Source of the DNA: Buxus sempervirens
Taxonomy: Eukaryota > Streptophyta > Magnoliopsida > Buxales > Buxaceae
Assembly: GCA_947561395.2 (NCBI GenBank)
Contig: OX387187.1
Location: 30,051,829-30,115,828 of the forward strand
Direction: 5' to 3'
DNA length: 64,000 bases
A program made the translations under genes and the position numbers. Below the pieces are notes generated by a model. It worked only from the letters and a program-made list of their open reading frames with translations, was not told the DNA's origin and ran no database searches. Position 1 is the first letter of the stretch. Each line of letters begins with the position of its first letter. Of this stretch, positions 12,600 through 58,193 are shown one piece after another.

Positions 12600-12730
12600 A
12601 TCCGTGATTGTAATACGGGCATAGCGTGTCCGTATGAAGAATACGGACACACTGTGACCGTGAAATATTTACGGGCACAGTGTGCCCGTATAAAAATTAC
12701 GGGCACGGCATGCTCGTATGTTAAGTACGG
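12600..12730. repeat. TACGGGCA palindrome cluster at the antisense gene 2 promoter (A)
   Basis: Five units of the form TGCCCGTA, 4-6 bases, TACGGGCA, separated by 5-bp spacers (period about 27 bp). The cluster ends about 25 bp upstream of the TATA box. The same palindrome recurs at 20250-20353 and 20806-20912 in this element. Confidence 0.92.
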
Positions 12731-15087
12731 TTATTTCCGGAAAAATGCAAAAAATGGGCAGTTTTAATTTCTTTGTTTCCCTAAGCTTCACCTGTCCCTG
12801 TTTTAACATTCATAATGTAATAAATACTGAAACTAAAGAAGAAAAGAACACAAATGAATATAAATCAAACTTCTTTTATATATATCTGAATGTTTACATC
12901 ACTTTTACAAAAAAAAATACAAGTGTACATGGAAGAATCCTAATCTAATGCCTATGTAGGTCCACCCCTACGGCCACGGCCTCGTCCTCTGCCCCGACCA
13001 CGGCCTGAAGATCGCCTGCGCGCAAAGACATGCCGTACAATATTGCGGGCTGTGCTGCGAGTCATCCTGCTCAAAACAGACTGAATATCATACCACATGT
13101 ATAAAGGCACAAAGCCAGCAGTGGGATGATCAGGAGGAACGTACCCTGAAGTATCTATATATCCAGTAGACTCCGTATCCGAATCAGTACGGGACAAATC
13201 AACTGAAGGGCTAGCAGCAGCAGGTGGCTCCTCTACAGCCTCCATGGCAGGATCAGCAGGAGCAGATGTCCCAGGAACATCAGCATCAGGACCAGGCTCC
13301 ACAGGATCAACTGTAGCCTCCTCCATCACCACAGCCTCCACAGCAGGCTCTACCACAGCAGTATCCATAGCTGACTCCACATCCGCAGATGCTGCAGGAG
13401 CAGTCTCAGGAACTGGGGCAGACTCTGGCACATCCTCAGTAGCAGGCGCAATATCAACCTCAATCTCAGGCTCTACTGCAGGTGCCACCACTGGATTGGG
13501 AGAAGTCACGAACTCCACCCGTGCCACAGAAAATACCTCACCTCGAAGATGCATAGGCACAGGTGAAGCAAGTGAGGAAGGGTCAGCTGTATCCTCCTGA
13601 AAATAAGAGAAGAAGCTTCAGTCAGAACAAGATAAACTAAATACAAGAGCAGGAATAGAAAAAGAAAATAACCTGTGTATGAAATGGACCCGCCTGGTCC
13701 TGTGCATCAGATGGACCCTCCTGGCCCTGGGCTCTGGCTAGCTGCCCCCGGAGGTCTGATATCGTGATATAGAGGGCATCCCGCTCAGCAATCGCAGCAT
13801 CACGCTGGCGCTCTAAATCAGCATAGTGAGACCTGATCTCTGCCAACTGAGCCTCCTGAAATAGAAAAGAAAGAAGTCAGAAAAATGCTAAGTTCTAATG
13901 AAATGTAAATAGAAGATCACAAAAGAAGAAGGCATACCGTCGTGTCATAGGCCCGGATCACTACCCCTCCTATCTCCGTGACTCCACCATGGACAGGCAT
14001 GGGTGGCATGAGGCACCCAACTGAAGCTCGCCTGAACCAGGCATCATAGTCACCCTCCTCTAATAGTGTCTCTGCCTCAGTCCAATCTAGGAACTGGGCA
14101 GGATCTACAGGCATAGGAGGAAAGAAAGGGGCAGTGTCTGGAGGAATGGCAGGAATCCGCGGCTCTCCCACATGCTGAAAGAAGAAGCGCTCGCCGCAGT
14201 ACCAGATGCTGCCCATCTGACCAATAAAGAACTGATATCTCTGTCGTCTCTGGTCAGGGACAAATGCATCATCTCTGGCTGCATGCAGGGCCATCACCTC
14301 ATGAATGTCCTCCATCCGGGGAACAAATAGCTGAAAAACAGAATGGGATATTAGATATGTGATTCGGGAAGAGAAATAAAGAAGAAAGAAGAGGAGTTAA
14401 AGTAGATTACCTTAGACCAGTAAAGCCTGTCCAAGTGGGCCCGGGCGGACCTGGGACGAATCTTTTCAGAGTCGTGCTCTACATGACACCATCTACGTGC
14501 CATGGGATACGTCTCCTCAGGCATCGTAGAGGTAGGGCAGAAATAGGGTATATAAACCCTAGCAAAAAACTGCAGAAAATAGAAAAGAGTCAGAGGAATA
14601 TAGAAAGCGAGATAGAAAGAAAGAGATAAAGAAAAAGAAGGGAAATAAGATTCACTTGCAAGAAGGGCCAGAAGAATCTGGACCCAACTCCAGTCCCTCT
14701 GGAAGTAGAGAGGCCGCTCACTGATCGGCGCAGGCCAGCCAGAATGGTACCAAAAATGAGTGGGCCCCATGCATACCTCCTCGCCCGCTGCAGATCTCCC
14801 AGAAGACTCAGAAAATGAGGATTAATTGAAGTCGTGTCCTCTGGGAAGAAGCAGGATCCCATCATATACAAGAAGATAAATCTGAAGGCGAAAGGGAAGA
14901 CAGGATCACCAGCAACCAGCTGTCCTAGTCGCCTCCTCAAGAAAGTCTCTCTCAACCAGGTCAGAGACAATCTAGCTCTCCCTCTATCCCAGGCCTCATG
15001 AGGCAAGACTACATATCCAAGATAAGATGCGACCTCCTTAGCATCTGGCATCACCATCTCGGGAATAATATCACCGGTCATCCTAAT

Positions 15088-15092
15088 CCCGG
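15088..15092. repeat. Target-site duplication CCCGG, left copy (S2)
   Basis: CCCGG precedes TGTGCGCACC and is repeated at 18155-18159. Removing the insert joins the two halves of the PMD core in frame. Confidence 0.95.
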
Positions 15093-16367
15093 TGTGCGCA
15101 CCCGATTTCGGTCGCACGGCGAGGCGCACGCAAAACGACGATGCGTGCCTCGGGATTTGGTTTGGAGTCGCCACTGCCTGATGGGGTGCAGGCAGACACC
15201 CGGGTGCCTAAGTTCTTTTTCTAAGGCTTTTGGTCTGCGGCTTTGAGATTCTAAGTAGAGGCTCGGTTGCGGTCTGGGGAAGTCCGTAGACACCCCAGTC
15301 CACCCTGTCAAGTGACGGGTCCCATAGGTTTCCCTGGTTTGAGTCAACTCAGTTGGTCTCTCACTCACCCGATTCCTATTCCAGCATGCAATTTTGATTA
15401 AGTCTGGCGAGACCGCCAAAGTGATGTGGGTCCCTTTACTTGATTTTATCTTTTTAATTAAGATGATCTGAGCCTGGTGGGGTGGGCCCCGTTGGAAGGC
15501 CCACGGTATCCCTTGGTGGGCCAAGTGTGGCCCGCATGTTCCTTGGTGGGCCAAGTGTGGCCCTTTGGATTTTGGCTCACTTTGAATTGATTTTATTTTA
15601 GAGTTCAAGTTGGATTAGTTAAGTGGATTTCATGCCAAAAGTGGGCCAGGATTGCTTTGTGGGCCCTTGAGTGGGCCCCACAATTGGTTGCCAATTGATT
15701 TTGATTTTTATCTTTCTTATCTGTGTCAAAATGGGCCAAGCATTGGGCTTGGGGCCCTTTACCTGGGCTTGGGCTTGAAAGCCCAAGGCTTCCGGAATTA
15801 GGGTTTGGAAACCCTAAGTTGGTCGGGTTCATGGGCTTAGTGGGCCCGATAGGCCCTACCCGGGGTCTCGGCCAAACCATATCTTACTTTAATCATGCAT
15901 GGCCCAATTAGGGCTTGGGTGGGCCTCAAATGGTATGGCCCACTCAAATCTTTTATTATCTTAGTTAAGCATGAATGGGTTGGTCGGGCTTGGTGGGCCC
16001 CGTTGGAAGGCCCACCGGAAATCAATTTGGACCGGGTTGGTCCATGGCCCATGTTGGGTTTCCGGGTGACCCGGGAACCCTATTGGTTCATCCGGTTCGG
16101 TTTGGAAATAAAACCCACATTCAGCAATAATCACATAAGAAAATACACAAAATTGACACTCTATCAAGAAAAAAATTGGCTCATTGTGCTGGGTCCAAGG
16201 GGAGGTACCCGGGGGCCCTGTGGGCGAAGCGAAGCGGAGCCCACGGGGTGGGGTACCTCCCCGTACCAAGGTACGAGTTGGATGCGCAGTGAACAAAGGG
16301 GTAAGCGGTATGGTAAGGGGTATTTTTGGAATTTTCAAAAAAAATGACAATTCGGCCTGTTTTGGAC

Positions 16368-16652
16368 CTGGCGCTCACCTCCTGAGGTGAGCGCCAGGTG
16401 GGCGCCAGATGGGCGCCAGAATCTGGGCGAAATTTTGACCTGGCGCTCACCCGATACCAGGTGAGCGCGAGCTGGGCGGGAGGTGAGCGCGAGATGGGCG
16501 GGAGGTGAGCGCGAGATGGGCGCGAGAATTTCGCCTGTTTTTTGGTGGGTGCGAGCTGAGCGCCAGGTGGGCGCCAGCTCGGCGGGAAGTGAGCTAAAAG
16601 GGGCGCCCACCTCCTAGGTGAGCGCCAGGTGGGCGCCAGGTGGGCGGCAGGT
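16368..16652. repeat. GGCGCTCACC palindrome cluster, transcribed part of S2
   Basis: Many copies of GGCGCTCACC, GGTGAGCGCC, GGTGGGCGCCAG and GAGCGCGAG, partly arranged as palindromes. Together they form a GC-rich block about 0.7-0.9 kb downstream of the TATA box. S3 keeps a diverged copy at 40081-40306. Confidence 0.88.
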
Positions 16653-17307
16653 CACTGTGATTTTCAACTCTCTGTTTTTTTGAGATCTCCATCTCTGGCC
16701 GATTTTTTTCGGTCTGTAACTGTTCCACTAGCTTCCTAACATGCCCAGAACACTTCCCAACTAGTTTTGGATTTAATCTAAACACATTTTTATGAAATTC
16801 AAACCTCCTTGTAAACCCGCAAATTCGAACACCTAGACACTAACAGAACATGCAAGGAAGGGAACAGGGGGTTTTATGGGGTTACAACAAAGAGAGAGGA
16901 CTCGTGGGAACAGACTCCCACCTTCGAATCAAACGAGCAAGAACAAAAATATATAACATGCTGAAGTGGGAAACATGCTCGATTCATATATGTTAAAACC
17001 ACAACACAAAGAGAGCTCACCTTGGTTCCGAACCTTTGTAGAGCAGGCCGGAGGGTTCCTGGAGTTCACGAGGTGCTGCCGAGCCTCCTTCTTCTCACAC
17101 CAAGAGCAGGACCTCCTTCGGATTCGTCGAGGAAGGAGAGGAAGCGAGAGGCCGAGTGTCTGGTTTTTTTTTGTGAGGAAGATGGTAGCCAAGACCCCCT
17201 TTCGAATGCCGAAACCCCAGGATGCCTAGCCACAAAACAAAAATCTCCCACTAAAAATCCGAACCCTCCCCAAAATTTTCGAACCCCTGAAATGAAAGCC
17301 TGCGCAG

Positions 17308-17315
17308 CTTTTATA
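17308..17315 (-). promoter_or_regulatory. TATA box of solo LTR S2
   Basis: TATAAAAG on the minus strand lies about 20 bp downstream of a GCGCTCACC palindrome cluster. A GTGAGC donor follows about 290 bp further on, as in S1. Confidence 0.7.
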
Positions 17316-17330
17316 GAAGAGGAAAATGGG

Positions 17331-17394
17331 GTGCCGCTCACCTTGGCGCCCAGCTCAAGGTGAGCGCATACCCCCTGCCACGCCCGCTTGAGCG
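17331..17394. repeat. GCTCACC/GGTGAGC palindrome cluster upstream of the S2 TATA box
   Basis: CCGCTCACC, GGCGCC, AAGGTGAGCGC and CGCTTGAGCG occur within 64 bp just upstream of the TATA box. This is the position occupied by TATCCGGC palindromes in S1. Confidence 0.75.
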
Positions 17395-17639
17395 ACCAAA
17401 TGATTTCAAAGTAATAAATGCCGCCGCTCGTTTGTTTTTAAAATCTGAAAATTAGGATATGGTCCCTGGGATATTTAGGTTTAATATTATTTTATTCAGA
17501 TATTTTCAAATACTTTCAGATTGGTCCCTGGGATATTTTGAATGTTTGGATATTTATGGATTTGATCCCCGAGATATTTTCCTGCGCAACTCGCCACGTG
17601 TGCAGCTTTTTGCCACGTGCGCAGTTCGCCGGTTTTGCT

Positions 17640-18110
17640 GCTCGGGAACTTCGCCAGCCCATATTTTCTTCATCCGGGCTCCGATTTTGGCAAACTCAGT
17701 TGCGTTAGAATCGTATCGGAGCCCTCTATCCGATGACTTAGGGGTAGGCCTCCGGATCGGATTTTAGCAGAAAGTCAACTTTTGGCTCTGCTCAAGTTTG
17801 ACCGCCCGCAGAACCTTCATCCGGACCCCGATTCCTGCAAACTCAGTTGCGTTGGAACCGTGTCGAGATTCTCTATCCAATGATATGGGGCTAAGCACTT
17901 GGCACGGAATTCGAGAAAAAGTCAACTTTCGCTCTCCCTTAAGTTTGACTGCCCGCCGAACCTTCATCCGGACTCCGATTCCAACAAACTCAGTTGCGTT
18001 AGACTCGTGTCGGGATTCTCTATCCATTGATATAAAGCAAGGTGGCCAAATATCACTTAATGAAAAAGTCAACTTTTTGTCCCCTCAGGGTTTGACTTTC
18101 TGCCAGGGTT
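17640..18110 (-). repeat. Tandem ~146-bp U3 repeats of S2
   Basis: Three units with AAAGTCAACTTTT, AAGTTTGACCGCC and CTCAGTTGCGTT blocks. They are homologous to 1583-2110 in S1 and carry repeated TTGAC (W-box) cores. Confidence 0.85.
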
Positions 18111-18154
18111 TTCATTTTCAGCAATTCCAGGGGTGCAAAAATAAGGTGCTTACA

Positions 18155-18159
18155 CCCGG
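18155..18159. repeat. Target-site duplication CCCGG, right copy (S2)
   Basis: Perfect second copy of the duplication flanking S2. Confidence 0.95.
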
Positions 18160-18886
18160 TGATAAGGGTGAAGTCAGAAGGCCTGATCCCGATCTCAATA
18201 TCTGGGAAGTGGAAGCTCAACGTCTCCGGGAAGAATCTCTCGAGCAATGCAGCAATAAGGGCCCGATCTAGTCGCACGTCTGGAATAGTGATAAACAGGC
18301 CAAAGCCATATAAGCCTAGCTCCCTGCGGTAGGCTGAACTGCAGGCTCCCAAGAACCTAATGAAGCTGGCCCAGCTCCCTCTGAAATGGGACATCGGATA
18401 CTCCAAAGGGATATCCGCCCTAATGCACGCTGAGGGATGAGTCCTCAAGCCATGCAAGAGGTCGGTATCCCTAATCTGGGTAGCCACCTCCTCAGAGACC
18501 TCCACTCTGGTCCTGGCCTCATCTCTGCCACGGCCACCTCTGCGGCCTCCTCTACGGCCCTCATCATGGCGTCCATCTTGACCTCCAGCTCGGTGCTTGC
18601 TACGGCTCCTATCTCTGCTCGAAGCCTCAACTGCCGGCTAAAGGAACAATTGGAAAGAAGAAAGGATCAAGGTGATGTTTTTTTGTAAAAGAATGTCAAA
18701 ATCAAAGGAGTTAGAGAGTACCTCTGGGGTCGCCTCACTCGAATCCCCAGAAGGGAGATCTGGGATATTAGAATCCGAATCCCTCTCGGCCCTCGAAGAA
18801 GTGGCCACATCAGAATGATCTCGCCTAACTCTCGAAGAGGAAGGCTCATCTGCAGGATCCCTAGAAGTTGATCGAAGGCGGGCCAT

Positions 18887-20249: not shown

Positions 20250-20353
20250 ATCCGTAAACTCAGTACGGGCATCAGACGACTGTGAAAGTATACGGTCCCG
20301 TTTGACCATGTTCAATATACGGGCAGCGTTGGTCCGTGATAGAAATACGGGCA
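20250..20353. repeat. TACGGGCA palindrome cluster at the antisense gene 1 promoter (A)
   Basis: Four units with TACGGGCA right arms and CCGT left arms, somewhat degenerate, directly upstream of the presumed minus-strand start. The motif is the same as at 12600-12730 and in the 3' LTR. Confidence 0.88.
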
Positions 20354-20703: not shown

Positions 20704-20805
20704 TGTAGACACCCCAAATTGCACTACATAGTGAGAAAGTAATAAAAACATGTAATTAGAGCTTAAAAGAGGTCAAAGATACATAAAAATTGACTAAGCA
20801 GGCTT

Positions 20806-20912
20806 TGCCCGTATTACATTCACGGGTCAGTCGCGCCTGAAAACACTCTACGGTCAGGCGCGCCCGTATTGGAATTACGGGCACCACTGGACCGTGGATC
20901 ATTTACGGTCAC
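20806..20912. repeat. TGCCCGTA/TACGGGCA palindrome cluster in the LTR of A
   Basis: Four units at a period of about 29 bp, about 200 bp upstream of the TATA box. The second unit is degenerate. CGCGCC spacers are inserted around it. Confidence 0.88.
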
Positions 20913-21110
20913 TAAAGACTCATGCGAGTTTGATTCTTCTCTCGATTTCCGAGCTTTATCTTTGGTCCAATATCCTTTTAATGAGCGGATTATGTCTTTT
21001 ATTCACTGAAGTCACCTTGCTTGGCTATAGATGGGCATTATCTCCAACTTTCTCTCTATCCTGAGGATCAGGATATATCCTTCTGGACCAGCCTTGCCCT
21101 TGTGCTTTCC

Positions 21111-21119
21111 TATAAATAG
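21111..21119 (+). promoter_or_regulatory. TATA box in the LTR of A
   Basis: TATAAATAG is followed by TCCTCAAGCAAAGGGC and a CAG/GTAAGT donor about 100 bp downstream. The arrangement is the same in B, C and D. Confidence 0.85.
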
Positions 21120-21282
21120 AGGTGAGATCCTCAAGCAAAGGGCCACGAAATTTTGAAGAATCTAGAGCTCCAAGAGAAGGAAAGGAATCCCTGCTTCCCT
21201 GCTGCTTTGCTTGCTGAATCCAGGTAAGTCCCTTTTCCTTTTTTTATTTCATATTCTAGAAGTAATAGGATCATCTCTATTG

Positions 21283-21570
21283 CTGTAGAATAAGGCCATC
21301 TATTTTATTTTGTATCCCTAAACTTGTCTCTAAGTACCTCAAGAGTCTCTCTAGCCGTAAAACGTGAAGAGAGAGCTAGGGGAAAGGGGAACAGGTGGAT
21401 CCCTAGAATAGAACCCCATAATTTGTTTTTTCTATTTTTTTGGAATAAGGCCTGTGACTGTGTTTGTGTACCCAAACCTATCTCCAAGTACCTCAAGAGT
21501 CTCTCTAGCCGTAAAACGTGAAGAGAGAGCTAGGGGAAAAGAGAACAGGTGGATCCGTAGGGTAGGCCCC
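21283..21570 (+). repeat. 155-bp tandem duplication in U5 of A
   Basis: Two copies of a block containing CTCTCTAGCCGTAAAACGTG, GAGAGAGCTAGGGGAAA and ACAGGTGGATCC. D has the same duplication (about 56885-57135), whereas B and C have one copy. Confidence 0.85.
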
Positions 21571-22502
21571 CATGTGCTCTAATATGTGAGATATGGCTAT
21601 TTTTGATATCCTGATCATGTTTTAATGATTATATTTTATATCTGAATGAATAACATGAATCTGTGATATTTATAGCATGAGATCCGCTTTTTTCCAAAAT
21701 TTGGATTTTTCACCACTTTTGCACCTACAGCACTGTTTTCGTGATTTTTGGGATTTTAGGCTAAGATTATGGATTTATCATGATCAATATGATAGATCTA
21801 GATCTAGAAGCTTGAAAGCAAATTCTAGGGTTTCATGATGTTGTTTTTAAGTTGTTTTTTCCACTTTTGAGATAAGACCCTACGGTCTAAGTTCTCCCCT
21901 TTTGATGTTTTTTCATTAATGTGAGTATTTTTGGTTTTTTATTTCTTGATTTAACATGAAATTTGGGCTTTATCTATGTCCTGGACTGTTCAAGTTCAAT
22001 TTTGAAATATTTCATAAAAATCATATTTTTCTAGATTTCTAGAATTTGACTTGAAGCCAGATTTTTGGATTTTTCACTTTAGATTGGTTTTATTTGATTT
22101 GATCATGAAACCCTAGGAACGGTATGATCATATTTGAAAGTTCTGGATCAATCAGATTATTCATATGAAAAAACCATACATGTTTGTCTTTTTTGTGAAT
22201 TTTTGTGATTTTCATAGCAAGCCTTTTTCCTTTATTTTAACATGAACAATACCTGGCAACCACCTTGTGTGGATGAATAGGGGTGCCTAACACCTTCCCC
22301 TGTTCATAACTTAATCCCCTTACCCATCTCTGGTTGTTTTTTTAGGAGGGATATTTTGCCCTAAATTTGCCTTTTGTGCTTATTTGATATTTTGGTGTCC
22401 ATTCACACCTAGATTGAATGGTGGCGACTCTGTGTGTTTTTAATGAATCCCGCGTGATGATCAGGGAAGTCATTAAATTGATTTTTTCCCCCATGTCTCA
22501 CA

Positions 22503-24800: not shown

Positions 24801-24903
24801 TGTAGACACCCCAAATTGCACTACAAGATGAGAAAATAAAGAAAAATATTTAATTGGGATTTGAAACAGGTCAAAAAAGGTGAAAAATTAGTCAAACCTA
24901 TTC

Positions 24904-25010
24904 TGTCCGCATTTGGTATGCGGACGAGCGTGTCCGCATTTGATTTGCAGACATTACGTGACCGCATTGAAAATGCGGACAAGGCGTGTCCGCAAATCAA
25001 ATGCGCACAC
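24904..25010. repeat. TCCGCAT/ATGCGGA palindrome cluster in the LTR of B
   Basis: Four units of the form TGTCCGCAT, 4-5 bases, ATGCGGACA with 5-bp spacers (period about 28 bp), about 190 bp upstream of the TATA box. It differs from the TACGGGCA form of A mainly by CCGCA for CCGTA. Confidence 0.92.
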
Positions 25011-25196
25011 ACATAGTTTGGGCATTTTTGTAAAAATTCTTTCTTTAAGCCTTGTTACTATTTTTTTCCTCTCTCTAGGGTTTCTTCCATACCGTTTTGC
25101 CCTCATTGGGGCTCATATTTACTCCAACTCATGTTTCTAAAACTGAATTGGAACATTCTAGAACCTCTTGGGACCACCCTTGCCCTTGCTTTTGCC

Positions 25197-25205
25197 TATA
25201 AATAG
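25197..25205 (+). promoter_or_regulatory. TATA box in the LTR of B
   Basis: TATAAATAG in the same context as in A and C, followed by a GTAAGC donor 132 bp downstream. Confidence 0.85.
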
Positions 25206-26669
25206 AGGGTCTCTCCTCAAGCAAAGGGCTGAAAATTACGAAAGAGAATTGTGGCTAAGAATTGCTGAGAAATTGAAGATTGGGAAAACTCCAAGTGAAA
25301 AAGAGAATCCTTGCCTCTTTGCTTTCTTAAGTCTAGGTAAGCTTCTCTACCCTTTATTTTTAGTTTTAATTTTTAGGATAGTTCTAATCTTCTCCCTTTC
25401 TGTAGAATAAGGCATGTGTGTGATTGTAACCCCAAACCTAAATCCAAGTACCTGAAGTATCTTCTCTAGCCGTGAAAAGTGAAGAGAGTTCTATGGGAAA
25501 GAAGGACAGGAATGGATCTGTAGGGCAAACCCCCATATGCTGTAATCTTAGAACTATGTAGTTTTAATGTCTTGTTTATATTGTGTGATGATTTATTGAT
25601 GTAATATGGAGGAACACCATAGATCTATGATGTTCATAGCATTAGATCTCATTTTCCTCATAAATTTTGATTTTTCACATTGTTTTCTCCATTTTTTATG
25701 TTTTTTTATGTTTTTAATCATTTAGGCTAAGATCTTGGATCTGCCATGGTCAATATGGTAGATTTGGCATCAGAAGCCTTAAAATAACCTCTAGGGTTTC
25801 ATGAGGTGATTTTTGAGTTATTTTTTATTTTTGAGAGAAGACCCTATGGTCTAAACTCTCCCTTTTGGATATTTTTCATCAATATGGGTGAATCTGGTTC
25901 AAATCTCTTAATTAATGAGAAACCTAGACCAGATCTGTACCCCAGATGGTTTTGATTCATTCTTCAACTTTACAAAATGATTTTTGGCTTATTTTCAATT
26001 TTGAGAGAAGACCCTACGGTCTAAACTCTCCCCTTTTGATGTTTTTCGTCAACGTGAGTGTATTTGGCTTAGATTTCTTAATTAATAAGATATCTGGGCT
26101 AGATCTGTACCTTAGATTGTTCAGGTTTAATTTTTCAATATTTTGTAAAAATAATTTATTATTATTATTATGTAATTCTTAGATTTCAAGGATTTGACTT
26201 AGAGCTATATTTTTGAAGTTTTTACTTTAGATTTGTTTTCTTTATCTTGATTTTAGTCAATCATGAAGCCCAAGAAATGGTATATTCATAAGATGGATCC
26301 AGAATTAATTGGATCATTCATATGAAAAAGCCATACATTTTTTATACTTTTTCTTTTATTTTTGATTTGATTTTTATTAGTAAGCCTTTTTTTAAAACAT
26401 GAACAATACTTGGCAACCACCTTGTGTGGATGAATAGGGGTGCCTAACACCTTCCCTTATTTATAATCTAATCTCCTTACCCATCTCTGGTTTATTTTTT
26501 ATTAGAGTTATTTTTTAATCTAATTTTGGTCTTTAATATTATTTATTTTATTTGATTATTTTGGTGTCCATTCATACTTTAAAATTGAATGGTGGTGACT
26601 CCATGATTTTATTGAGCCCGTGTGATGATTAGGAAGGTCATTGAATTGATTTTTTTCCCATGTCTCACA

Positions 26670-27954: not shown

Positions 27955-28100
27955 TGTCCGTAAACCGCATTTCATTTGCGGACATGGCCTGATCGCACTT
28001 TATTTGCAGACATAGCCTGACCGCACTTTATTTGCGGACATAGCCTGACAGCATTTCATTTGCAAACACGGCTAGTCCGAACTTAGTATGCGGTTTTACG
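27955..28100. repeat. CCGCAT/TTGCGGACA palindrome cluster in the leader of B
   Basis: Four to five units with spacers TGGCC or TAGCC at a period of about 29 bp. The motif matches the LTR of B and not those of A or C. Confidence 0.9.
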
Positions 28101-29042: not shown

Positions 29043-29131
29043 TGTAGACACCCCAAATTGCACAATAATCATCAAAAATCATTATCTCCTTGAAAGCCAG
29101 CACAGAAATTGAAGAAAATGAGTTTTTACCT

Positions 29132-29275
29132 GTATCCGGCAACTCAGGCCGGATACAAGTACTCCTATTTGTATCTAGTGGATAAAACCGGATACAAGCA
29201 ACTCTTAGTATATCCGGCATTATATGCCGGATACATTAAGACCCTTGTGTATCCGGCCTGATATGCTGGATACAT
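29132..29275. repeat. TATCCGGC/GCCGGATA palindrome cluster, 5' LTR of C
   Basis: Four imperfect palindromes of about 25-27 bp separated by 13-14-bp spacers (period about 40 bp), ending 155 bp before the TATA box. Each arm contains CCGG. Confidence 0.93.
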
Positions 29276-29429
29276 TAGTTTTGCTCAAAAATTAGGGTTT
29301 TCCGAGAGAAATCACTTTTTACCATCATATCCCTCATTAAATGAGGGGAAATCTCGGAAACAGCCCTAGGGTTAAGGTTGGTGGGCTTTAGATATTAAGT
29401 TGTGTCTACCATCAACCCTATCCTTTGCC

Positions 29430-29438
29430 TATAAATAG
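29430..29438 (+). promoter_or_regulatory. TATA box, 5' LTR of C
   Basis: TATAAATAG followed by GAGGCTCCTCCTCAAGCAAATGG. The G-to-T change compared with A and B creates an ATG here. Confidence 0.85.
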
Positions 29439-29457
29439 GAGGCTCCTCCTCAAGCAA

Positions 29458-29532
29458 ATGGCCAAGAAGTTGGAGATCTACGAGCTCCGAGTGAAGAAGG
29501 GAACCGCTGCTGGATTGCTTCCAGAACCCCAG
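29458..29532 (+). CDS. Possible first coding exon of gag in the LTR of C
   Basis: Twenty-five codons from an ATG to a CAG/GTAAGC donor. The frame at the donor matches the frame at the acceptor before gag (TTCCCCAG, exon from 34567), so splicing would join this exon to gag without a stop at the junction. The 3' LTR keeps the same length and frame. A, B and D lack the ATG, so this start is specific to C-type elements or accidental. The predicted intron is 29533-34566. Confidence 0.45.
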
Positions 29533-36645: not shown

Positions 36646-36659
36646 AACCAGGAGGAGGT

Positions 36660-46112: not shown

Positions 46113-46255
46113 GTATCCGGCATATCAGACCAGATACAAAGCATTCTATTCATATCCAGTGAAGAATGCCGGATACAAAGGCTTTTTAGCGTATCCGGCA
46201 TATTATGCCGGATACAAAGAAAACTCAATGTATCTGGTCTAATATGCTGGATACA
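46113..46255. repeat. TATCCGGC palindrome cluster at the antisense gene 2 promoter (C)
   Basis: Four units at a period of about 40 bp, the same form and spacing as in the LTR of C. In A this site carries TACGGGCA units. Confidence 0.92.
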
Positions 46256-46456
46256 AAGAAAAACTGCAAAAAAAAAGAGAAAAGGGAGGAAAATCCGAAT
46301 TTTTTACCTGTTTTACCTATGTACAAGTCATAATTACATAAAATTGAAAAGAAAAGAAGTGCAAGACAAGAGAGAATGAATAAAAAATGTTTTTCTTATA
46401 TATATGCAAGTTTTCTGTACAAAGGGGTAAATATACATTAAAATCCTAATCTCCTA

Positions 46457-49143
46457 CTATTGTACAGGATCATCCCCGCGTCCTCGGCCGCGTCCTCCTC
46501 TACGGCCTCTCCTTCGAAGTGATCGGCCCCTAGAGTATGCCAGAATACGCTCGGCAGCATGATGAGGAAGTTGACCCACAACTTGCTGGATCTGATACTC
46601 CAAGCAGTACTCTGAAATGTCGGGAGGCGGAGCAGGAGCAGAATCTGGGGAGGAAGCCCCGGGCTCGGCAAGAACGGGCTGAACTGGACCCTCAGCCGTA
46701 GTGGTATCCGCTTCCGCAGCTCCAGAAGGCCCAACAGCAGCAGCAGAAGGACCAGGAGCAGAAGTATCTGGGTCAACAGTAAAAAATCAGAAAATTGAGA
46801 TATAAAGAGGAACCAAAGAGGAAAATTAAAAGAGAACATACCAGGAATGTCTGCAGCAGGAACCAGGGGATCCGGCTCACCAGGACCAGCCGCTGGGGCA
46901 TCCTCGGGATCAGCAACCCGAGCCGGAGATGGACCAGATACAGGGAAGTCAGGCTCGTTGGCAGCATCCTGATCAGGGACCGGGCCCTGCACAAGTCAAA
47001 CAGGCATGTCAGAATAACAGAAACAGGGAAATGAAAGAGATGAAAATATAAGAAGACCAGATACCTGTCTAGCCTGGAGCTCAGCAACTAGGGCCTCCAG
47101 CTCCCTGATCCGGGCATCCCTCTGGGCCACGACCACATCATGCTCGGCGATCATATCATCGATCGTGGCCCGCTGGCTCTCGAACCGGTCCCGGATAGTA
47201 TTCAGCTCGTGTACCTGCCAACAAGAACAGAATTGGGGTCAGAAATACAGAAGGGAAGAAAAGTGGATGAAAATATGAAAATTACAAGACTCACCGTGTC
47301 CTCATGGATCTGGATACAGATCCCGCCAATCTCGGTCACCTCGGCACGAGTGGGTCGATCCATCAAGCACCCAATAGATACTCGCTGGATCCATTCGTCG
47401 TAATCTCCAGCTACTGTGAGCCCCTCCACATCCAGGAAATGATCGAACTGATCCACATCAAAGCCCGGTAGGAGTGTGTCGGGACCCACAGGAGGAGGAG
47501 GAACGAGGATGCGAAGTGTGCCTGTGTGCTGGTAGTACAGGCGCTCTCCTAAATACATCACCCTACCAAGCCTCCCAAGGAAACACTGGTAGGGCTGACG
47601 TCGGAGATCTCTATCAAAGGCATCCTGTATTGCCATCTCATGGGCCACTCCAACATCCACATCATCAAAATTGGACAGGATGAGCTGCAAAGAAAAGAAG
47701 CTGTCAGATACAGTCAAGATGCAGGAAGAGAAGTAAAAGGAAAAAGGATAAAGGACTTACATCGGATTGGCGGGCACGGTCCAAGTGCACCTGAGCAGTG
47801 CGAGGCTGACTCCTATCAGCATCTCGGACCTGGGCCGACCAACGTAAAGCAACAGGGAAATCCGCGACCTCAGGCACCGGGGATGGGCGGAAGAAAGTCA
47901 TATAGGTGTACATAAACACCTAGCAAAAGAAAAATCAATCAGAAATAAAGGAGGATAAAACCCAAGGAATTAAACCAAACAGATGAATTCAATACCTGCA
48001 GAATTTGCCAGAAGAATCGGCAGTTGACTCCATCCCCTCTCGGAGCTGCCAAGCCCCGAACTACTCAGCATAACCCGACCAGGATGGTCCCATAGATGAG
48101 TCGACCCCATTCTAGCTGGCGAGTCTGGTGGAGATCTCTCAAGGCATCCAAAAATAGCGGGCTGACACTGGTAGTATCCTCTGGGAAGAAGCAACTCCCG
48201 AGCATCAACAGGAATATGTGTCGGAAGATAGGGACAAAAGCTGCATCCTCCACAGAGATGGTCTCGTGCCTCCCCTCATAATGACGAGCCAGGCTCTCCC
48301 GCAACCAACTAATAGAGAGGCGACCACTCGGCCCATCCCAAGTAGCATGAGGCAGGTCCGGATATCCCAGGAGGAGGCCGATATCCTCCGCAGAAGGCCG
48401 ATCCAAGACGATGGTCCGCCCCGTCAAAGGAATACCAGTAATCATCACAAAATCGGAGGGGCGGATCCCTAGCTTCACGTCCGGAAGATGGAAGGACTGA
48501 GTCTCTGGAAAATATCTCTCCATCATAGCAAAAATGAGTGGGCAATCGGCTCTGAATGATGGGATGCTAAGGAAATGATCCAAGTGGCACCTCCTAAACT
48601 CGCGTCTGAGTGCCGGAGAAAGGGATTGAGCCAACTCGCTGAATCTCCCCCAACTGCCTCGCAAATGGGAAGAATGGTAGGGAAGCGGCACATCGGCCCT
48701 GATGCACATAGAGGGGTGGCTATCCAAGCCACTGAGAAGCTCTGTATCATGAACAGACGCTCTCAGCTCCTCAGAGACCCCTGACAAACCTACAGCAGTA
48801 CCATCCTGAGCCGCACCTCTGGCTCTGCCACGGCCCCGGCCTCTGCCACGGCCTCCCTCACCCTCAAGGGCCGGATCATGAACTCTGCCTCAGCCTCTGC
48901 CCCGACCCCGAGCAGGAGCAACAACAGGCTAAAATTCAAAGGAAAAGTGTGAAGATTGGTATGGGAAGAGAATAGAAGGAGGAAGAGAAGAGCTTGAAAG
49001 CCTACCTCAGCAGAGCTCTCCCTAGAGACATCTAGAGGCTCCGACAGGGTGGCGCTGGAACTAGCCTCTGTCCGAGCCCGCGAAGTGGAGGGCTGATCCG
49101 CAGGGTCAGCCTCCTCTCTAACTCGGGAACGACTCCTAGCCAT
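46457..49143 (-). pseudogene. Antisense gene 1 of element C: seven-exon plant-mobile-domain protein
   Basis: Predicted exons are 49143-49006, 48928-47996, 47919-47761, 47684-47295, 47214-47065, 46986-46842 and 46767-46457. The donors include GTAAGT (47760) and GTGAGT (47294), and all acceptors are AG after pyrimidine tracts. The protein has a Ser/Arg-rich start and the PMD core (MMERYFPETQSFHLPDVKLGI; GRLSISWLRESL; LLMLGSCFFPEDTTSVSP; LEWGRLIYGTIL). A YDEWIQRVSIGCL exon follows, then a coiled-coil exon (RDRFESQRATIDDMIAEHDV), a Pro/Ala/Glu-rich region and a GRGRGRG tail. One TGA (48892-48890) replaces an Arg codon in the RGG-like part of exon 2. It is otherwise open, and the exon order matches A. 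Confidence 0.85.
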
Positions 49144-50434: not shown

Positions 50435-50499
50435 GTATTCGGTAAATCAGACCGGATACAAATGAGCCCTCCCTTATCCGGCTAAACATGCCGGATACA
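50435..50499. repeat. TATCCGGC palindrome pair at the antisense gene 1 promoter (C)
   Basis: Two units, 7 bp upstream (minus strand) of the TATA box. Beyond them lies the A/G-rich tract (50504-50665), which may have replaced further units. Confidence 0.87.
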
Positions 50500-50665: not shown

Positions 50666-50696
50666 AAAATGTGCTATAAATTCTACAATTTTCTCA

Positions 50697-50990: not shown

Positions 50991-51060
50991 AGCAAATCAT
51001 GCTTAAGGGAGTGCAATTTTGGCTTGTCTAATCTTTGCAGCTCACTGCTTCACAGCTCCC

Positions 51061-51075
51061 GCAAAGAGGGGCAGT
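51061..51075 (+). other. Polypurine tract of element C
   Basis: GCAAAGAGGGGCAGT immediately before the 3' LTR. It matches A and D. Confidence 0.88.
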
Positions 51076-53363
51076 TGTAGACACCCAAATTGTACAATAA
51101 CCATCAAAAATCATTATCTCCTTGAAAGCCAGCACAAAAATTGAAGAAAATGAGTTTTTACCTGTATCCGGCAACTCAGGCCGGATACAAGTACTCCTAT
51201 TTGTATCCGGTGGATAAAATCGGATACAAGCAACTCTTAGTATATCCGGCATTATACGTCGGATACATTAAGACCCTTGTGTATCCGGCCTGATATGCCG
51301 GATACATTAGTTTTGCTCAAAAATTAGGGTTTTCTGAGAGAAATCACTTTTTACCATCATGTCCCTCATTAAATGAGGGGAAATCTCGGAAACAGCCCTA
51401 GGGTTAAGGTTGGTGGACTCTAGACATTAAGTTGTGTCTATCATCAACCCCAGCCTTTGCCTATAAATAGGAGGCTCCTCCTCAAGCAAATGGCCAAGAA
51501 GTTGGAGATCCAAGAGCTTCGAGTGAAGAAGGGAACCGCTGCCGGATTGCTTCCAGAACCCCAGGTAAGCCTCAACCTCTTCTTATTTTTTGTATTTACA
51601 TTCCTAGATCTAGATCTCTTCTTGTACCTTTCTGTAGAATAAGGCCTTCAATGTGTGTGAAAATCCTTCCCTGGCTCACAGTATCTCAAGACTCCCCTAG
51701 CCGTAAAACGTGAAGGCGGGATCTAGGAGAAATTAGACTGGGGATTGACCCTAGTACCAGAACCCTTCTTGCATAAGCCTTTTGAATCTGTGAAGCCCGT
51801 TTCATATTCAAAGTACCCCATGATTATCTTGAAGAACCGTGTTTAACAGAGAGAGAGAACAAAGGGAAACGATAATGGAACGGAACCCTAGGTTGTTTTA
51901 GAACCTTATTTTGATGAATATGTATGCATGCTATGTTGTTATATTGATCTTGTATGGTTTTTCACACTTGCACATACATAGCACTATTTTGGCGGGATAG
52001 GCTCACATTTGGGGATTTATTACATTCATTGTGATAAATCTCAAATAAATGGCCTCAATAAATTCTGGAATGTTTTTAAATGAGTTTTAAAAGATTTGGA
52101 TTCATCTTGCACGAATTTCACATACTTTGTCACAGTTTTGGATGGTTTTTCTCCGAAAAAGGCTTTACTTGACAGCAACTGTACCCTGACTTCGGACACT
52201 CATAACTTCATCATCCGGATGAATTTTGGAGTGATTCTAGAACCATGGGAAAGGTGAGGCTATTTATTTCATGTCTACCAAATTTCATTAATTTCTATGA
52301 AGCAGATTTTTGACACCATTCTGCCGAAGTTGAGAGGTCATTTCAGGTCAAACTGTTGAACCTATCACTTCGAATGGGCGCCATCTGCTTGTTTTAAATC
52401 CGATTCAAGTGATTTTTCTTTCTGGGAACTCCTTTATGAGTTTATTTTTAACTCCAATTGGTTTCATAATTTTTTGATTTAAATTGTGTCGTGGAGAGCA
52501 GATTTACTCAGGACTACTCAACAACAGTTTTTTGGGTTAATCTGTGATCCTCAGGGCCTGTTCGGGAAGTCACCCAAGGCACATCCGAACGAGTTTTGGT
52601 ATGAGGATAGTTTCTTTTGAAAGATGCCATACAGACTTCATTCACACCAAATTTCACGGATTTCTATGGAGTAGATTTTTCTAGGTGATTTTCCAAACTT
52701 GCCTACTTGTTACTTTTGATTTTCTCCGATAGCAACTTTAAAAGAGCCATAACTCTTAGAATTTCAACCGGAATTAATTGAAATTTTGCATGAGACTATT
52801 GTTTACCCTAATCTTTCAAATGGATTTGGTTTGATTTAATTTAAAATTGGATTTGAATGATTTCAAGACAAATGGCATTACTTTTTACCGAATTCCCCGG
52901 ATTTTATTCAACTTGGTTTTGTGCAACTTTTGCTTTCATTTCCATCTTTTTGTGATATTCCAGAAATGATATTGACATAAAAGAGGATCTGGAATTCATT
53001 TGGATTTTCATGTGAAGATATCATATATTTGTCCTTTTTAAAGGTTTTAATGATTTTTTAGCAAGCTTCATTTTTTCTTAGCATGAACAAAACTTAGCAA
53101 CCACCTTGTGTGGGTGAATGGGGGTGCCTAACACCTTCCCCCGTTCATAATCTAATCCCCTTACCCATCTCTGGATTTGATTTTCACGTAGGGTTATTTT
53201 TACCCTAGAATGTGTCTTTTATCTCTTTTTGCTTATTTTTAATCCTTTGGTGTCCATTCACACCCTAAACCTTGAATGGTGGCCACTCCCAAATTTTATG
53301 TCGAGCCCCACGTGTTGACAGAGGGATGATCATCTTCGGGTGATTTTTTTCCCATGTCTCACA
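51076..53363 (+). mobile_element. 3' LTR of element C
   Basis: 2288 bp, nearly identical to the 5' LTR by eye. Scattered differences include the loss of one C in ACACCC and changes inside the palindromes. It contains the palindrome cluster (51164-51306), a TATA box (51462-51470) and a CAG/GTAAGC donor. Confidence 0.95.
51164..51306. repeat. TATCCGGC palindrome cluster, 3' LTR of C
   Basis: Four units as in the 5' LTR. Unit 2 here has intact TATCCGG where the 5' copy reads TATCTAG, and unit 3 has a changed right arm (CGTCGG). Confidence 0.93.
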
Positions 53364-53705
53364 GTGGGACATGCTGGAAGCCCTAAAATATTCCAACAAC
53401 TCTTTGGATGGTATTTTCGTACCACCCAATTCATATCTTGTGGTACATGTTGGAAGCTCTAAAATATTCCAACAACTCTTTGGATGGTCTTTTTCGTACC
53501 ACCCAATTCATATCTTGTGGGATATGTTGGAAGCCCTAAAATATTCCAATAACTTTTTGGATGGCCTTTTTCGTGCCAACCAAGTCATATCTTGTGGGAC
53601 ATGTTGGAAGCCCTAAAATATTCCAACAACTTTTTGGATGGCATTTTTCGTGCTAACCAATTAATATCTTATAAGACATGTTGGAAGCCCTAAAATATTC
53701 CAACA
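53364..53705 (+). repeat. ~78-bp minisatellite of B leader, right part
   Basis: Resumes with the second GTGGG copy and continues for about four to five units of the array seen at 28800-29042. It marks the return to element B. Confidence 0.9.
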
Positions 53706-53846
53706 ATTCTTCAAAATAAACAAAAAAAACATAAAATAAATAATAAAGTCCAAACTCATTTTCACTTAACCTGCATACATGCATTCATAGGTGTGTGAAT
53801 GAGACATAAATTGGGGCTAACATTTTCTTTATTTTTCCTTTGCTAG

Positions 53847-55918: not shown

Positions 55919-57317
55919 TGTGAGACATGGAAAATCAATTTAATGACTTTCTAAACATCACACGGGGTTCATTAAAACAAAGAGTCACCACCATTCTATT
56001 TAGGTGTGAATGGACACCAAAATCATCAAATCAAATAAACAAAAAGGCAAAATTAGAGTAAAAATAACTCTATTTTAAAATACAAAACAAAAACAACCAG
56101 AGATGGGTAAGGGAATTAGGTTATGAATATGGGAAGGTGTTAGGCACCCCTATTCATCCACACAAAGTGGTAGTTAGGTTTTGTTCTTGCTAGAAAAAGG
56201 CTTGCTAATGAAAATTGAATCAAAAGTAAAGAAAACGTAATAAAAACATGTATGGCTTTTTCTATATGAATGACCCAATTAATTCTAGATCCTCCATATG
56301 AATGTGTCATCTATAGGGTTTCAAGATTGAAAATAATCATCAAAGAAAGTGACTCAAAAGTCAAAACTTGAATAAACCAACTTTACGTTAAATCAATGAA
56401 CTCTTGAAAATCCAGGATAAAAATTAAGGTTATTTAAACAAAACCTTGAAGGAAAAGACCTGGATTATTTAGGGTACAGATCTGGACCAGATCTTTCATT
56501 AGTTGAGAGATCTCAACCAGATACACCCAGATTGATGAAAAACATAAAAAGGGGAAAGTTTGGACCATAGGATCCTCTCTCCAAGGTTAAAATAACTGAG
56601 AAAAACACCTCATGAAACCCTAGAGGTTACTTTAAGGCTTCTGATTTTAGATTTACCATATAGATCATGATAGATCCAGAATCTTAGCCTAATATCACAA
56701 AAATCAAGAAAACAGTGATATAGGTGCCATGGTGTGAAAAATCCCAACTGTAGGAGGAAAACAGGATCTCATGCTATAAACAACATGGATCCATAGGATT
56801 CCTCCAGATTTAGAGTAAAACCATTAAAACATTAACAGAATAGTAAAATCAACCACATATCACCGATTACAGCACATAAGGGCCTATCCAAAGGATCCAC
56901 CTATTCTCTTTTCCCCTAGCTCTCTCTTCACGTTTTGCGGCTAGAGAGGAGTTTTGAGGTACTTCGAGATAGGTTTGGGGATACAAACACAATCAATGGC
57001 CTTATTCTAAGAAAAGAACAGACTATAGGGTTATATTCTAAGGATCCACCTGTTCCCTTTTCCCCTAGCTCTCTCTTCACGTTTTACGGCTAGAGAGGAG
57101 TCTTAAGGTACTTGGAGGCAGGTTTGGGGATACAAATATAAACTAGGCCTTATTCTATAGAAATGGAGAAGATTAGACTATTTCTGAAATTAAAAACAGA
57201 AAATAAAAGAGAAAAGAGACTTACTTGGATTGAGAAAGCAAAGAAGTAGGGGTTCCCTTCTTCACTTGGAACTCTTCAAGCTTCAGATTCTTGGCCTTTT
57301 GCTTGAGGATCTGCCCT

Positions 57318-57326
57318 CTATTTATA
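57318..57326 (-). promoter_or_regulatory. TATA box in the LTR of D
   Basis: TATAAATAG on the minus strand, in the same context (AGATCCTCAAGCAAAAGGCC downstream) as in A-C. Confidence 0.85.
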
Positions 57327-57533
57327 GGCAAATCCAGGGGCATGGTTGGTCCAAAGGGATATACCAAAATCTTCCAGATTGAATTGAAAATAGGGATAAT
57401 GCCAATCCATTGCCAAATAGGATAAATAAGAGAATTCGAATGGATAAATAAGAGAATTCGAAACTTCTAGAGAGATATTTGGATGCAGATAAGGTTCAGA
57501 AATCGAAAAAGGATAAATTCGCACAAAAACCCC

Positions 57534-57642
57534 CGTGCTCGTATATACATTACGGGAAAGTGCTGCCCGTAGAGTTAATACGGGCACAGCATGCCCGTAT
57601 ATATATTGCGTGCACGACCAGCCCGTAAACAAAGTACGGGCA
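57534..57642. repeat. TGCCCGTA/TACGGGCA palindrome cluster in the LTR of D
   Basis: Four units with 4-5-bp spacers at a period of about 27 bp. The palindrome is the same as that of A, and both elements share the U5 duplication. Confidence 0.92.
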
Positions 57643-57744
57643 CTGCAAGTTTGATGAAATTTTATGCATTTTTGACCTATTTCTCATCCAATTACATGTT
57701 TTCAATTATTTTCTCAATTTGTAGTGCAATTTGGGGTGTCTACA

Positions 57745-57762
57745 ACTGCCCCCTCTTTGCTG
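57745..57762 (-). other. Polypurine tract of element D
   Basis: On the minus strand AGCAAAGAGGGGGCAGT directly before the LTR start at 57744. Confidence 0.87.
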
Positions 57763-58087
57763 GTAATTGGAACCAATTACTAGTAGAGAGCAAAAAGACC
57801 CACAAATTGAACTTTTTGAGATTTTGTCTAACTAATTGCAATTTGCAAGGATTAAAAGGATGATTTTTGAAAAAGAATTTGTATGGAGGATTTGCTGAAA
57901 AGTCGTTAACCTTAAGGGGCAAATCCTCCTCTCTAGTCTCACTGAGCACTCGTGGCTATGAAGTGAGATTTGAGACAAATTTTAAAACAAAAGTGGGTAA
58001 AGTGGCAATCCTTGCAATTTACAATTAATATAAACATTAACCTCCTGAAAAGCATGGAGAAAATGATGAAAAATGCAAATTTCTGGC

Positions 58088-58193
58088 TTGCCCGTATTTA
58101 CATTTCGGGCAAGTGATGACCGCAATCTTAATACGAGCGCAAATGACCGTATTACCTTTGCGGGTTTCTGCTGCCCGCCCTTCTTCTACGGGT
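58088..58193. repeat. TGCCCGTA palindrome cluster at the relic antisense promoter (D)
   Basis: Four partly degenerate units upstream of a TATA-like TTACTTATTCGCG on the plus strand. The position equals 20250-20353 of A. Confidence 0.85.

What the first reader, a model, noticed from the sequence alone, without database searches (positions are those of the whole stretch)
12600..58193. Element-private palindrome clusters placed at every promoter of each retrotransposon
Seen directly: clusters of usually four palindromic units recur at homologous functional places. These are about 150-200 bp upstream of the LTR TATA box, in the leader, and directly upstream of the TATA boxes of both antisense genes. 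Within one element all clusters use one palindrome: A (12600, 20250, 20806) TACGGGCA; B (24904, 27955) TCCGCAT; C (29132, 33005, 46113, 50435, 51164) TATCCGGC; D (57534, 58088) TACGGGCA. Surrounding sequence is alignable between elements while the palindromes are not. This implies concerted change of the motif at several distant sites in one element, as expected if something encoded by the element, or a silencing/anti-silencing factor, recognises it. A known parallel is VANC proteins of VANDAL transposons, which bind family-specific short motifs. The link here is inference.
Basis: partly seen in the sequence, partly recalled or inferred. Interest (0 to 1): 0.88.

Follow-up and report, generated by a model that had tools for sequence, protein, structure and literature searches.

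The report
Retrotransposon promoters carry private operator arrays
Large plant retrotransposons carry rows of evenly spaced palindromic DNA sites near their promoters, different subfamilies having different site sequences that change together at distant places in the element, as if each reads its own control code, possibly through an antisense protein that it encodes.

Summary
They lie in the LTR, the leader, and before both antisense PMD genes. Three solo LTRs of another family in the window do likewise; one shares C's motif. In the host genome (676 Mb) exact palindromes number 28,399 (C), 2,975 (A) and 186 (B) against 5, 0 and 0 for reversed controls; A/B hybrids number 32 where free mixing predicts about 1,488. 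In fetched copies, C-family core bases are 97% conserved (spacers 70-84%), and A- and B-type copies keep their class in 14 of 14 readable arrays. In the C family the eighth base co-varies between gene-1 and LTR arrays 5 kb apart and with the PMD exon, not with DNA beside the gene-1 array; LTR flanks track it too, the gene-2 array does not; samples are small and uncorrected for phylogeny. The motif belongs to subfamilies, not single copies. Best reading: a VANC-like self-recognition system in Ogre/Tat elements, the gene-2 PMD protein its likeliest reader. Binding is untested; host factors and array copying remain open.

The parts
20704..22502 (+). 3' LTR of element A (TGTAGACACC...TCTCACA)
20806..20911 (+). 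A LTR array, TACGGGCA class, 28-bp lattice (partly decayed)
12614..12733 (-). A gene-1 promoter array, TACGGGCA class, 9 half-sites at 13/15 bp; TATA box about 25 bp beyond it
20264..20353 (-). A gene-2 promoter array, TACGGGCA class; no TATAWAW
10763..12538 (-). A antisense gene 1: DUF7745/PMD protein, C-terminus coiled-coil-like by eye; ORFs 12242-12538, 11765-12238, 10763-11680
12952..18886 (-). A antisense gene 2: PMD protein in several exons, interrupted by solo LTR F2
24801..26669 (+). 5' LTR of element B, followed by a PBS-like sequence
24904..25009 (+). B LTR array, TGCGGACA, 8 half-sites
27977..28094 (+). B leader array, TGCGGACA; TATA box 67 bp beyond it
29043..31329 (+). 5' LTR of element C; TSD GTGGG at 29038-29042 and 53364-53368
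51076..53363 (+). 3' LTR of element C
29133..29272 (+). C 5' LTR array, TATCCGGC/T, 39-bp lattice
51165..51304 (+). C 3' LTR array, near-identical to the 5' LTR array
33015..33139 (+). C leader array; TATA-like site 95 bp beyond it
46114..46253 (-). C gene-1 promoter array; TATA 14 bp beyond it; gene 1 itself truncated in this copy
50436..50497 (-). C gene-2 promoter array (4 half-sites)
46441..49143 (-). C antisense gene 2; PMD exon 48068-48889 (Pfam PMD 38.8 bits, cut-off 34.9)
55919..57744 (-). 3' LTR of element D
57536..57642 (-). D LTR array, TACGGGCA class, 8 half-sites
58089..58179 (+). D gene-2 promoter array, TACGGGCA class, decayed; only about 2 kb lies between D's pol match and its LTR, so the gene body is probably lost
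1460..4811 (+). Solo LTR F1 inside A's gag region, TSD GAGTG; not listed in the finding
2328..2574 (+). F1 array 1, TATCCGGC class, 39-bp lattice in two blocks, TATA 13 bp beyond it
3648..3748 (+). F1 array 2, TATCCGGC class, inside the LTR downstream of its promoter
15093..18154 (-). Solo LTR F2 inside A's antisense gene 2
16370..16648 (-). F2 array 2, GGCGCTCACC class, many gaps of 11 or 22 bp
17333..17396 (-). F2 array 1, GGCGCTCAC class, TATA about 20 bp beyond it
38793..41411 (-). Solo LTR F3 inside C's pol region; its promoter-array region is missing
40080..40309 (-). F3 array 2, GGCGCTCACT class: sites of F2 with the last base changed

Best explanation
The arrays are binding sites for a sequence-specific, probably dimeric DNA-binding factor that acts on most promoters of an element, and the factor's specificity changes from subfamily to subfamily with its sites following. 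The likeliest factor is encoded by the element itself: the antisense gene-2 PMD protein (possibly with gene 1), which would find its own subfamily's LTR, leader and antisense promoters and keep them active, or set their level, in the manner of VANC proteins on VANDAL transposons. Shown: phased arrays at homologous places, class purity, core conservation, motif change at many sites of one element, linkage of motif state with the PMD exon. Inferred: binding, the identity of the protein, and the direction of the effect (anti-silencing is favoured over autorepression because LTR arrays are CpG-rich in CpG-poor flanks).
For: Lattices of 13/15 bp (A, B, D) and 15/24 bp (C, F1) with differing spacers. 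Core 7 bases 97.2-97.3% identical over 20-21 C-like copies against spacers 70-84% and flanks 77-90%. Genome counts 28,399, 2,975 and 186 against reversed controls 5, 0 and 0; exact A/B hybrids 32 against about 1,488 from free mixing. Lattice search with positions 2 and 6 masked: position 2 is G in 34 of 37 B-type and A in 37 of 41 A-type half-sites of fetched copies. F2 against F3: the 8 half-sites aligned whole and comparable all differ at the same base. C-family eighth base, gene-1 against LTR array: rho 0.81, n=17. PMD exon against LTR motif: Mantel 0.56, partial 0.48 p=0.0012; against gene-1 motif 0.25, partial 0.29 p=0.023, n=13; gene-1 5' end, gene-2 tail and exon 3 not significant. Gene 2 is 42-54% aa identical between A and C while RT is 92-93%, the integrase ORF 88% and the gene-1 start 74-79%. 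By hand count about 94 of 141 and 141 of 150 scored gene-2 matches have no stop (lists sorted by score, so biased to intact copies). LTR arrays have CpG o/e 0.9-1.6, their flanks 0.2-0.3.
Against: No binding data; only two gene-2 sequences link protein to motif class between families. The gene-2 array did not correlate with the other two. In the C family spacers co-vary as well (Mantel 0.52), and with controls, spacers and PMD all held the gene-1/LTR correlation is 0.11, p=0.19. LTR flank beside the array tracks the motif more strongly (0.67) than the PMD exon (0.48), and the 3' end of the LTR also does, r 0.52-0.70. Gag-region ORFs of A and C fall to 59% in places, so gene 2 is not alone in diverging. 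CpG o/e of F1 array 1 (second block) and F2 array 1 is not above their flanks. PMD proteins are not proven DNA binders. F1 shares C's motif, though one search shows no match of 110 bases or more between F1 and C's LTR, so a reader in trans is needed. Array 2 of F1-F3 and the gene-2 arrays have no nearby TATAWAW. D's arrays are less pure (position 2: A 10, G 4, T 1). Structure models were too poor to use.
Confidence: 0.58

Rival explanations
1. Host factors read the arrays. Different host DNA-binding proteins (activators hijacked by the element, or silencing factors that the element escapes by changing sites) recognise different classes; the PMD link is only shared ancestry.
For: Classes are shared by many copies, and C's class also occurs in F1, an LTR with no match of 110 bases or more to C's. 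LTR parts track motif state as well as or better than the PMD exon. U3 variation of Tnt1 is read by its authors as possible evasion of host control (PMC1838419, passages).
Against: A host factor does not by itself explain arrays before the antisense genes and in the leader of the same element switching together with few hybrids, nor r near 0 for DNA next to the gene-1 array while the PMD exon 2 kb away is linked.
Confidence: 0.2
2. Block homogenisation without function: a short repeat cluster arose once in each subfamily and was copied to other places of the element by conversion or template switching; similarity reflects copying, not selection.
For: In C the arrays at LTR, leader and gene 1 share spacers (0.50-0.58 identity, 0 of 400 shuffles each), as do D's two arrays (0.57, 0 of 400) and, more weakly, B's (0.48, p 0.028); gene-1 and LTR spacers co-vary over copies.
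Against: In A the arrays at three places have unrelated spacers (0.38-0.40, shuffle p 0.30-0.50) yet one motif, while the LTR arrays of A and B keep spacers (0.49, p 0.013) but differ in motif. Core bases are better conserved than spacers. F2 against F3 is point change at aligned sites.
Confidence: 0.13
3. The palindromes act as hairpins in RNA or cruciforms in DNA, for example for packaging, small-RNA production or recombination, so that only pairing matters.
For: Most units are inverted repeats; one search finds 172 such sites in the window against 57-81 in five shuffles (other palindromes included).
Against: Arms change by the same base at many sites instead of by private compensated pairs; F2/F3 arrays include direct repeats at 11 bp; where a TATA box was found the array lies upstream of it, so would not be in that transcript.
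Confidence: 0.04

Closest known systems
VANC proteins and target motifs of VANDAL (MULE) transposons, Arabidopsis (PMC5735166, passages read)
   Same: Element-linked short motif in dense arrays in noncoding regions; subgroups differ by one base (C-type and T-type of YAGTATTAY); several repeat units diverge together; the motif is rare in other TEs.
   Different: VANC21 motifs are arrayed in one orientation as tandem repeats in a DNA transposon; here half-sites are inverted on a fixed lattice, contain CpG, and sit in LTR retrotransposons whose antisense ORFs match PMD. No VANC homologue was searched for.
MAIN/MAIL1 plant mobile domain proteins and the DOWN motif (PMC7156037, PMC9899485, passages)
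   Same: PMD proteins whose loss lowers genes that share a promoter motif; TE-derived domain.
   Different: The motif in the MORC1 promoter is CATGCAGTTT; direct recognition is left open by the authors; these are host genes.
Ogre/Tat LTR elements with antisense extra ORFs (PMC6317226 and PMC11963269, passages)
   Same: aRH between RH and INT, very long LTRs, tandem repeats; PMD in 57% of Ogre elements of that survey; antisense TRP28 ORFs of Retand are proposed to bind DNA and to regulate.
   Different: No private operator arrays are described in the passages that I saw.
Tnt1 U3 subfamilies (PMC1838419, passages)
   Same: Promoter module differs between subfamilies of one coding lineage.
   Different: No palindrome lattice and no matching arrays elsewhere in the element in the passages that I saw.

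Membership tests
VANC/VANDAL anti-silencing system | Element encodes a VANC-family protein | not tested
   no VANC search was made; Pfam scans show PMD and DUF7745 in the antisense ORFs
VANC/VANDAL anti-silencing system | Host element is a MULE DNA transposon | tested here: not met
   LTRs, TSD of 5 bp, RT, RNase H, integrase
VANC/VANDAL anti-silencing system | Dense family-specific motif arrays in noncoding regions that diverge together | tested here: met
VANC/VANDAL anti-silencing system | Protein binds the motif and removes methylation in trans | not testable with these tools
   needs binding and methylation data
Ogre/Tat Ty3/gypsy elements | Second, archaeal-type RNase H between RNase H and integrase | tested here: met
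   RVT_1 and RT RNase H in ORF 6306-8087, RVT_3 then rve in 8088-9833; RVT_3 then rve in C 42721-44517. That RVT_3 is the archaeal-type copy is my reading
Ogre/Tat Ty3/gypsy elements | PBS complementary to tRNA-Arg | not tested
   PBS-like sequence seen after the 5' LTRs of B and C; tRNA match not computed
Ogre/Tat Ty3/gypsy elements | Antisense PMD extra ORF | tested here: met
   PMD 38.8 bits in C gene 2; hits of 20-31 bits, below the 34.9 cut-off, in four A pieces
Satellite or MITE inserted everywhere | One unit with own ends placed at unrelated sites | tested here: not met
   arrays lie at homologous places with alignable flanks in A, B, D LTRs and in gene-1 and gene-2 upstream regions; copying within C is not excluded

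The most novel reading that the evidence does not exclude
A genome-wide code of self and non-self among giant LTR retrotransposons: probably thousands of Ogre/Tat copies are split into subfamilies, each with its own inverted operator lattice at its promoters and its own fast-evolving PMD reader, with few hybrid sites, and with other elements (F1) using another subfamily's code to ride on its reader. PMD, a domain of unknown biochemistry, would then be a fast-switching DNA-recognition domain.
Probability: 0.4. Interest if true: 0.92.

Novelty: new variant of a known kind. Interest (0 to 1): 0.82.

Why it matters
Sequence-specific anti-silencing is known for Arabidopsis VANDAL DNA transposons. 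An independent case in Ogre/Tat LTR elements would suggest that private recognition codes are a general way for transposons to stay active, would give a first biochemical role to the antisense PMD proteins found in 57% of Ogre elements in one survey (PMC6317226, passage), and would supply natural protein-motif pairs for studying how DNA specificity changes.

Tried and rejected
Led nowhere: homologues of the C gene-2 exon in the protein database (5,318 candidates, none at E 0.001); pol relatives in viral contigs (6 pattern matches, none confirmed); PDB sequence match (none); AlphaFold models with 3 and 21 sequences (mean pLDDT 39.0 and 42.9), so no fold search was run. Considered and set aside: a transposed satellite (flanks homologous); CpG deamination as cause of the F2/F3 switch (by eye the CpGs of these sites are mostly kept while a neighbouring base changes). 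Not obtained: the count of mixed C/T C-class palindromes (six requests unanswered); with CC 7,571 and TT 8,968 of 28,399 at most 11,860 can be C/T against about 16,480 from free mixing (my arithmetic), a modest depletion at least. F-family copies from the genome were not obtained. Papers: in the listings and the passages I saw no mention of such arrays in Ogre/Tat elements; no paper was read whole, only open-licence PMC text was searched, and Steinbauerova et al. was seen only as a reference.


Full report
What is there. The window is a nest of Ogre/Tat-type Ty3/gypsy elements. C (29043-53363) is complete, with LTRs 97% alike and target duplication GTGGG. It is inserted in the leader of B (LTR 24801-26669; B resumes at 53364). 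D (minus strand, LTR 55919-57744) is inserted in B's gag region and runs off the window. A is the 3' part of another copy (LTR 20704-22502). Domain order in A is RT, RNase H, a second RNase H (RVT_3), integrase; C shows RVT_3 then integrase. Between pol and 3' LTR lie two antisense genes in A: gene 1 (DUF7745/PMD) and gene 2 (PMD, arginine-rich ends by eye); C keeps gene 2 and the start of gene 1. Three solo LTRs of a further family, F1-F3, sit inside A and C; the finding does not list them.

The arrays. Every cited cluster is a lattice of half-sites, mostly inverted pairs. A, B and D: half-sites 13 and 15 bp apart alternately, period 28 (some sites decayed or one base off). C and F1: 15 and 24 bp, period 39. 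F2 and F3: repeats at 11 or 22 bp among other gaps, and inverted pairs. Half-sites found by lattice: A 25, position 2 = A in 24; B 17, position 2 = G in 16; D 15, position 2 = A in 10, G in 4, T in 1. So D is less pure. A scan for any 8-mer in both orientations recovers most of these arrays and those of F1-F3; it also returns other repeats (for example 15451 and 53426-53601), which are not part of the phenomenon. Permuting class labels among arrays, all six multi-array elements agree in 1 of 200,000 draws; for A-D alone in 54 of 200,000. The labels were assigned by me from the motif, and A and D are related.

Places. LTR arrays begin about 90-103 bp inside the LTR and end 158-210 bp before TATAAATA. 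Gene-1 arrays end 14 and 25 bp before a TATA box, array 1 of F1 and F2 at 13 and 20 bp, leader arrays at 67 and 95 bp. The three gene-2 arrays have no TATAWAW, nor has array 2 of F1, F2 and F3 (TATAWAW occurs about 0.53 times per kb and strand). So the arrays mark most promoters, not only promoters.

Point change or block copying. Spacer comparison speaks to this (best register chosen, 400 shuffles, 42 pairs tested, uncorrected). Same place, different element: A and B LTR 0.49 (p 0.013), A and D LTR 0.50 (0.018), A and D gene 2 0.53 (0.007), but D and B LTR 0.45 (0.058). Different place, same element A: 0.38-0.40 (p 0.30-0.50). Thus A's arrays share a motif without sharing spacers, and B's LTR array keeps A-like spacers while its half-sites differ. 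Against a clean split: A's LTR and B's leader also score 0.45 (0.015), B's two arrays 0.48 (0.028), D's two arrays 0.57 (0 of 400), and in C the places share spacers (0.47-0.58; p 0.005 or less except leader against gene 2, 0.085), which speaks for copying of whole arrays. F2 against F3 is the cleanest point change: over 368 aligned bases with 68 differences, the half-site pattern occurs 16 times in F2; 8 are aligned whole with the C-type base and all 8 changed CACC to CACT or its complement; 1 already had T in F2; 7 fall partly or wholly in alignment gaps, in two of which only the last base is aligned, C in both. Between F1 and F2 the whole promoter part of the LTR is replaced.

Genome-wide counts (676 Mb). 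TATCCGG-N9-CCGGATA 28,399 against 5 for the reversed pattern. TACGGGCA-N5-TGCCCGTA 2,975 against 0. TGCGGACA-N5-TGTCCGCA 186 against 0. Exact A/B hybrid palindromes 16+16 (control 0) against about 1,488 from free mixing, 46 times fewer; one-base intermediates were not counted. The palindrome without the N5 gap was absent. In the first 90 C-class units listed, 48 of 58 gaps within arrays are exactly 39 bp, 9 are 38, 77 or 78 bp and 1 is 103. In that list several elements at C1 3.4-4.5 Mb have eighth bases A or T almost throughout at LTR, leader, gene-1 and gene-2 places, while three arrays elsewhere (142047, 4227668, 5920009) are mainly C. CC units 7,571, TT units 8,968; the mixed count did not complete.

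Out of sample. The C gene-2 exon has 141 matches scored of 3,118 candidates, A's 150 of 2,828; these are lower bounds. I fetched longer pieces for 20 of the 141 C-like places (chosen by me across the list), 4 of the 150 A-like, and 7 regions around 4 B-type elements from 40 scored LTR matches. With positions 2 and 6 masked in the search, the majority base at position 2 is A in all 8 A-type arrays (gene 2 and LTR, 4 copies) and G in all 6 B-type arrays found (2 gene-2, 3 LTR, 1 leader). B's gene-2 array is not in the window, so its class was a prediction. Of the 7 B regions, L057 and L058 held no array (not given), L056 held only the end of one, and in L053, probably the window B's own 3' LTR, the gene-2 place is occupied by other sequence. 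L059 holds one A-type half-site in a B array.

Conservation and covariation in the C family. Core bases 97.2, 97.3 and 97.2%, spacers 80, 84 and 70%, flanks 90, 90 and 77%, eighth base 58, 74 and 69% at gene 1, LTR and gene 2 (20, 20 and 21 sequences). The C fraction at the eighth base correlates between gene-1 and LTR arrays (rho 0.81, n=17 of 21), not gene 1 with gene 2 (0.13, n=16) or gene 2 with LTR (0.25, n=19). With n=16: motif against PMD exon 0.48, LTR flank 0.67, gene-1 flank 0.08, LTR body 0.02; partial gene 1 against LTR motif 0.32, p 0.006. Sliding windows (26 of 32 usable, n 10-17, 1,000 permutations, no correction for tree or number of windows): motif state tracks the PMD exon (r 0.36-0.61), the LTR array and promoter (0.46-0.70), the LTR middle (0.31-0.35), the LTR 3' end (0.52-0.70) and the gene-2 array window (0.34), and not gene 1's start (-0.12) or the gene-2 tail beside the gene-1 array (-0.03 to 0.03). 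With stricter alignment, n=13 of 21: gene 1 against LTR 0.33, p 0.017; PMD against LTR motif 0.56, partial 0.48, p 0.0012; PMD against gene-1 motif 0.25, partial 0.29, p 0.023; the stretch before the LTR is borderline (0.32, p 0.05); spacers co-vary too (0.52), and with controls, spacers and PMD held, 0.11, p 0.19 remains. The linkage is suggestive, not proof.

Mechanism. Inverted half-sites on a lattice, with conserved cores and freer spacers, at promoters of both directions, are what a dimeric DNA-binding regulator would leave. Private, co-changing specificity asks for a reader that changes with the element. Gene 2 fits best: arginine-rich ends, no stop in about 94 of 141 and 141 of 150 scored matches (hand counts), and 42-54% aa identity between A and C where RT is 92-93% and the integrase ORF 88%, though gag-region ORFs also fall to 59%. 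LTR arrays have CpG o/e 0.9-1.6 in flanks of 0.2-0.3; over all 18 arrays 163 CpG in 2,234 bases against 255 in 10,818 flank letters, but two F arrays are not above their flanks. This would suit protection from methylation or methylation-sensitive binding; that step is inference. F1 uses C's class with an LTR not alike, as expected of an element that exploits a reader in trans, or of recombination.

Relation to the known. It works like VANC/VANDAL (PMC5735166, passages: family motifs in dense arrays, C- and T-type subgroups, units diverging together) but is not a member: LTR element, inverted lattice, PMD proteins seen. PMD host proteins MAIN and MAIL1 go with a promoter motif, recognition left open (PMC7156037, PMC9899485, passages). 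Antisense TRP28 ORFs in Retand are proposed to bind DNA (PMC11963269, passages).

Noticed in passing
1460-4811, 15093-18154, 38793-41411: Three solo LTRs of another Tat-like family (F) nested in A and C; F1 has TSD GAGTG; F1 and F2 share LTR ends but differ over about 1.5 kb of promoter.
   Followed up: partly
15426-15926 and 4401: GTGGGCC/GGCCCAC repeats in the downstream part of F LTRs, seen in more than one copy, resembling the TGGGCC site-II motif of plant promoters (motif recalled).
   Followed up: no
28796-29042, 33424-34422, 53364-53711: 76-bp tandem repeats in the leaders of B and C; C inserted inside B's array.
   Followed up: no
45600-45911: Element C lost most of gene 1 but kept its promoter array; four C-like relatives examined have ORFs of 146-325 aa in that place within the 1 kb looked at.
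   Followed up: partly
36639-38303: Weak G-patch match (21.6 bits, cut-off 22) in C's ORF between gag and RT.
   Followed up: no
L053: B's probable own 3' LTR (95% alike) lies about 70 kb from its 5' LTR, spread by the nested insertions; an F-like LTR end (by eye) occupies its gene-2 place.
   Followed up: partly
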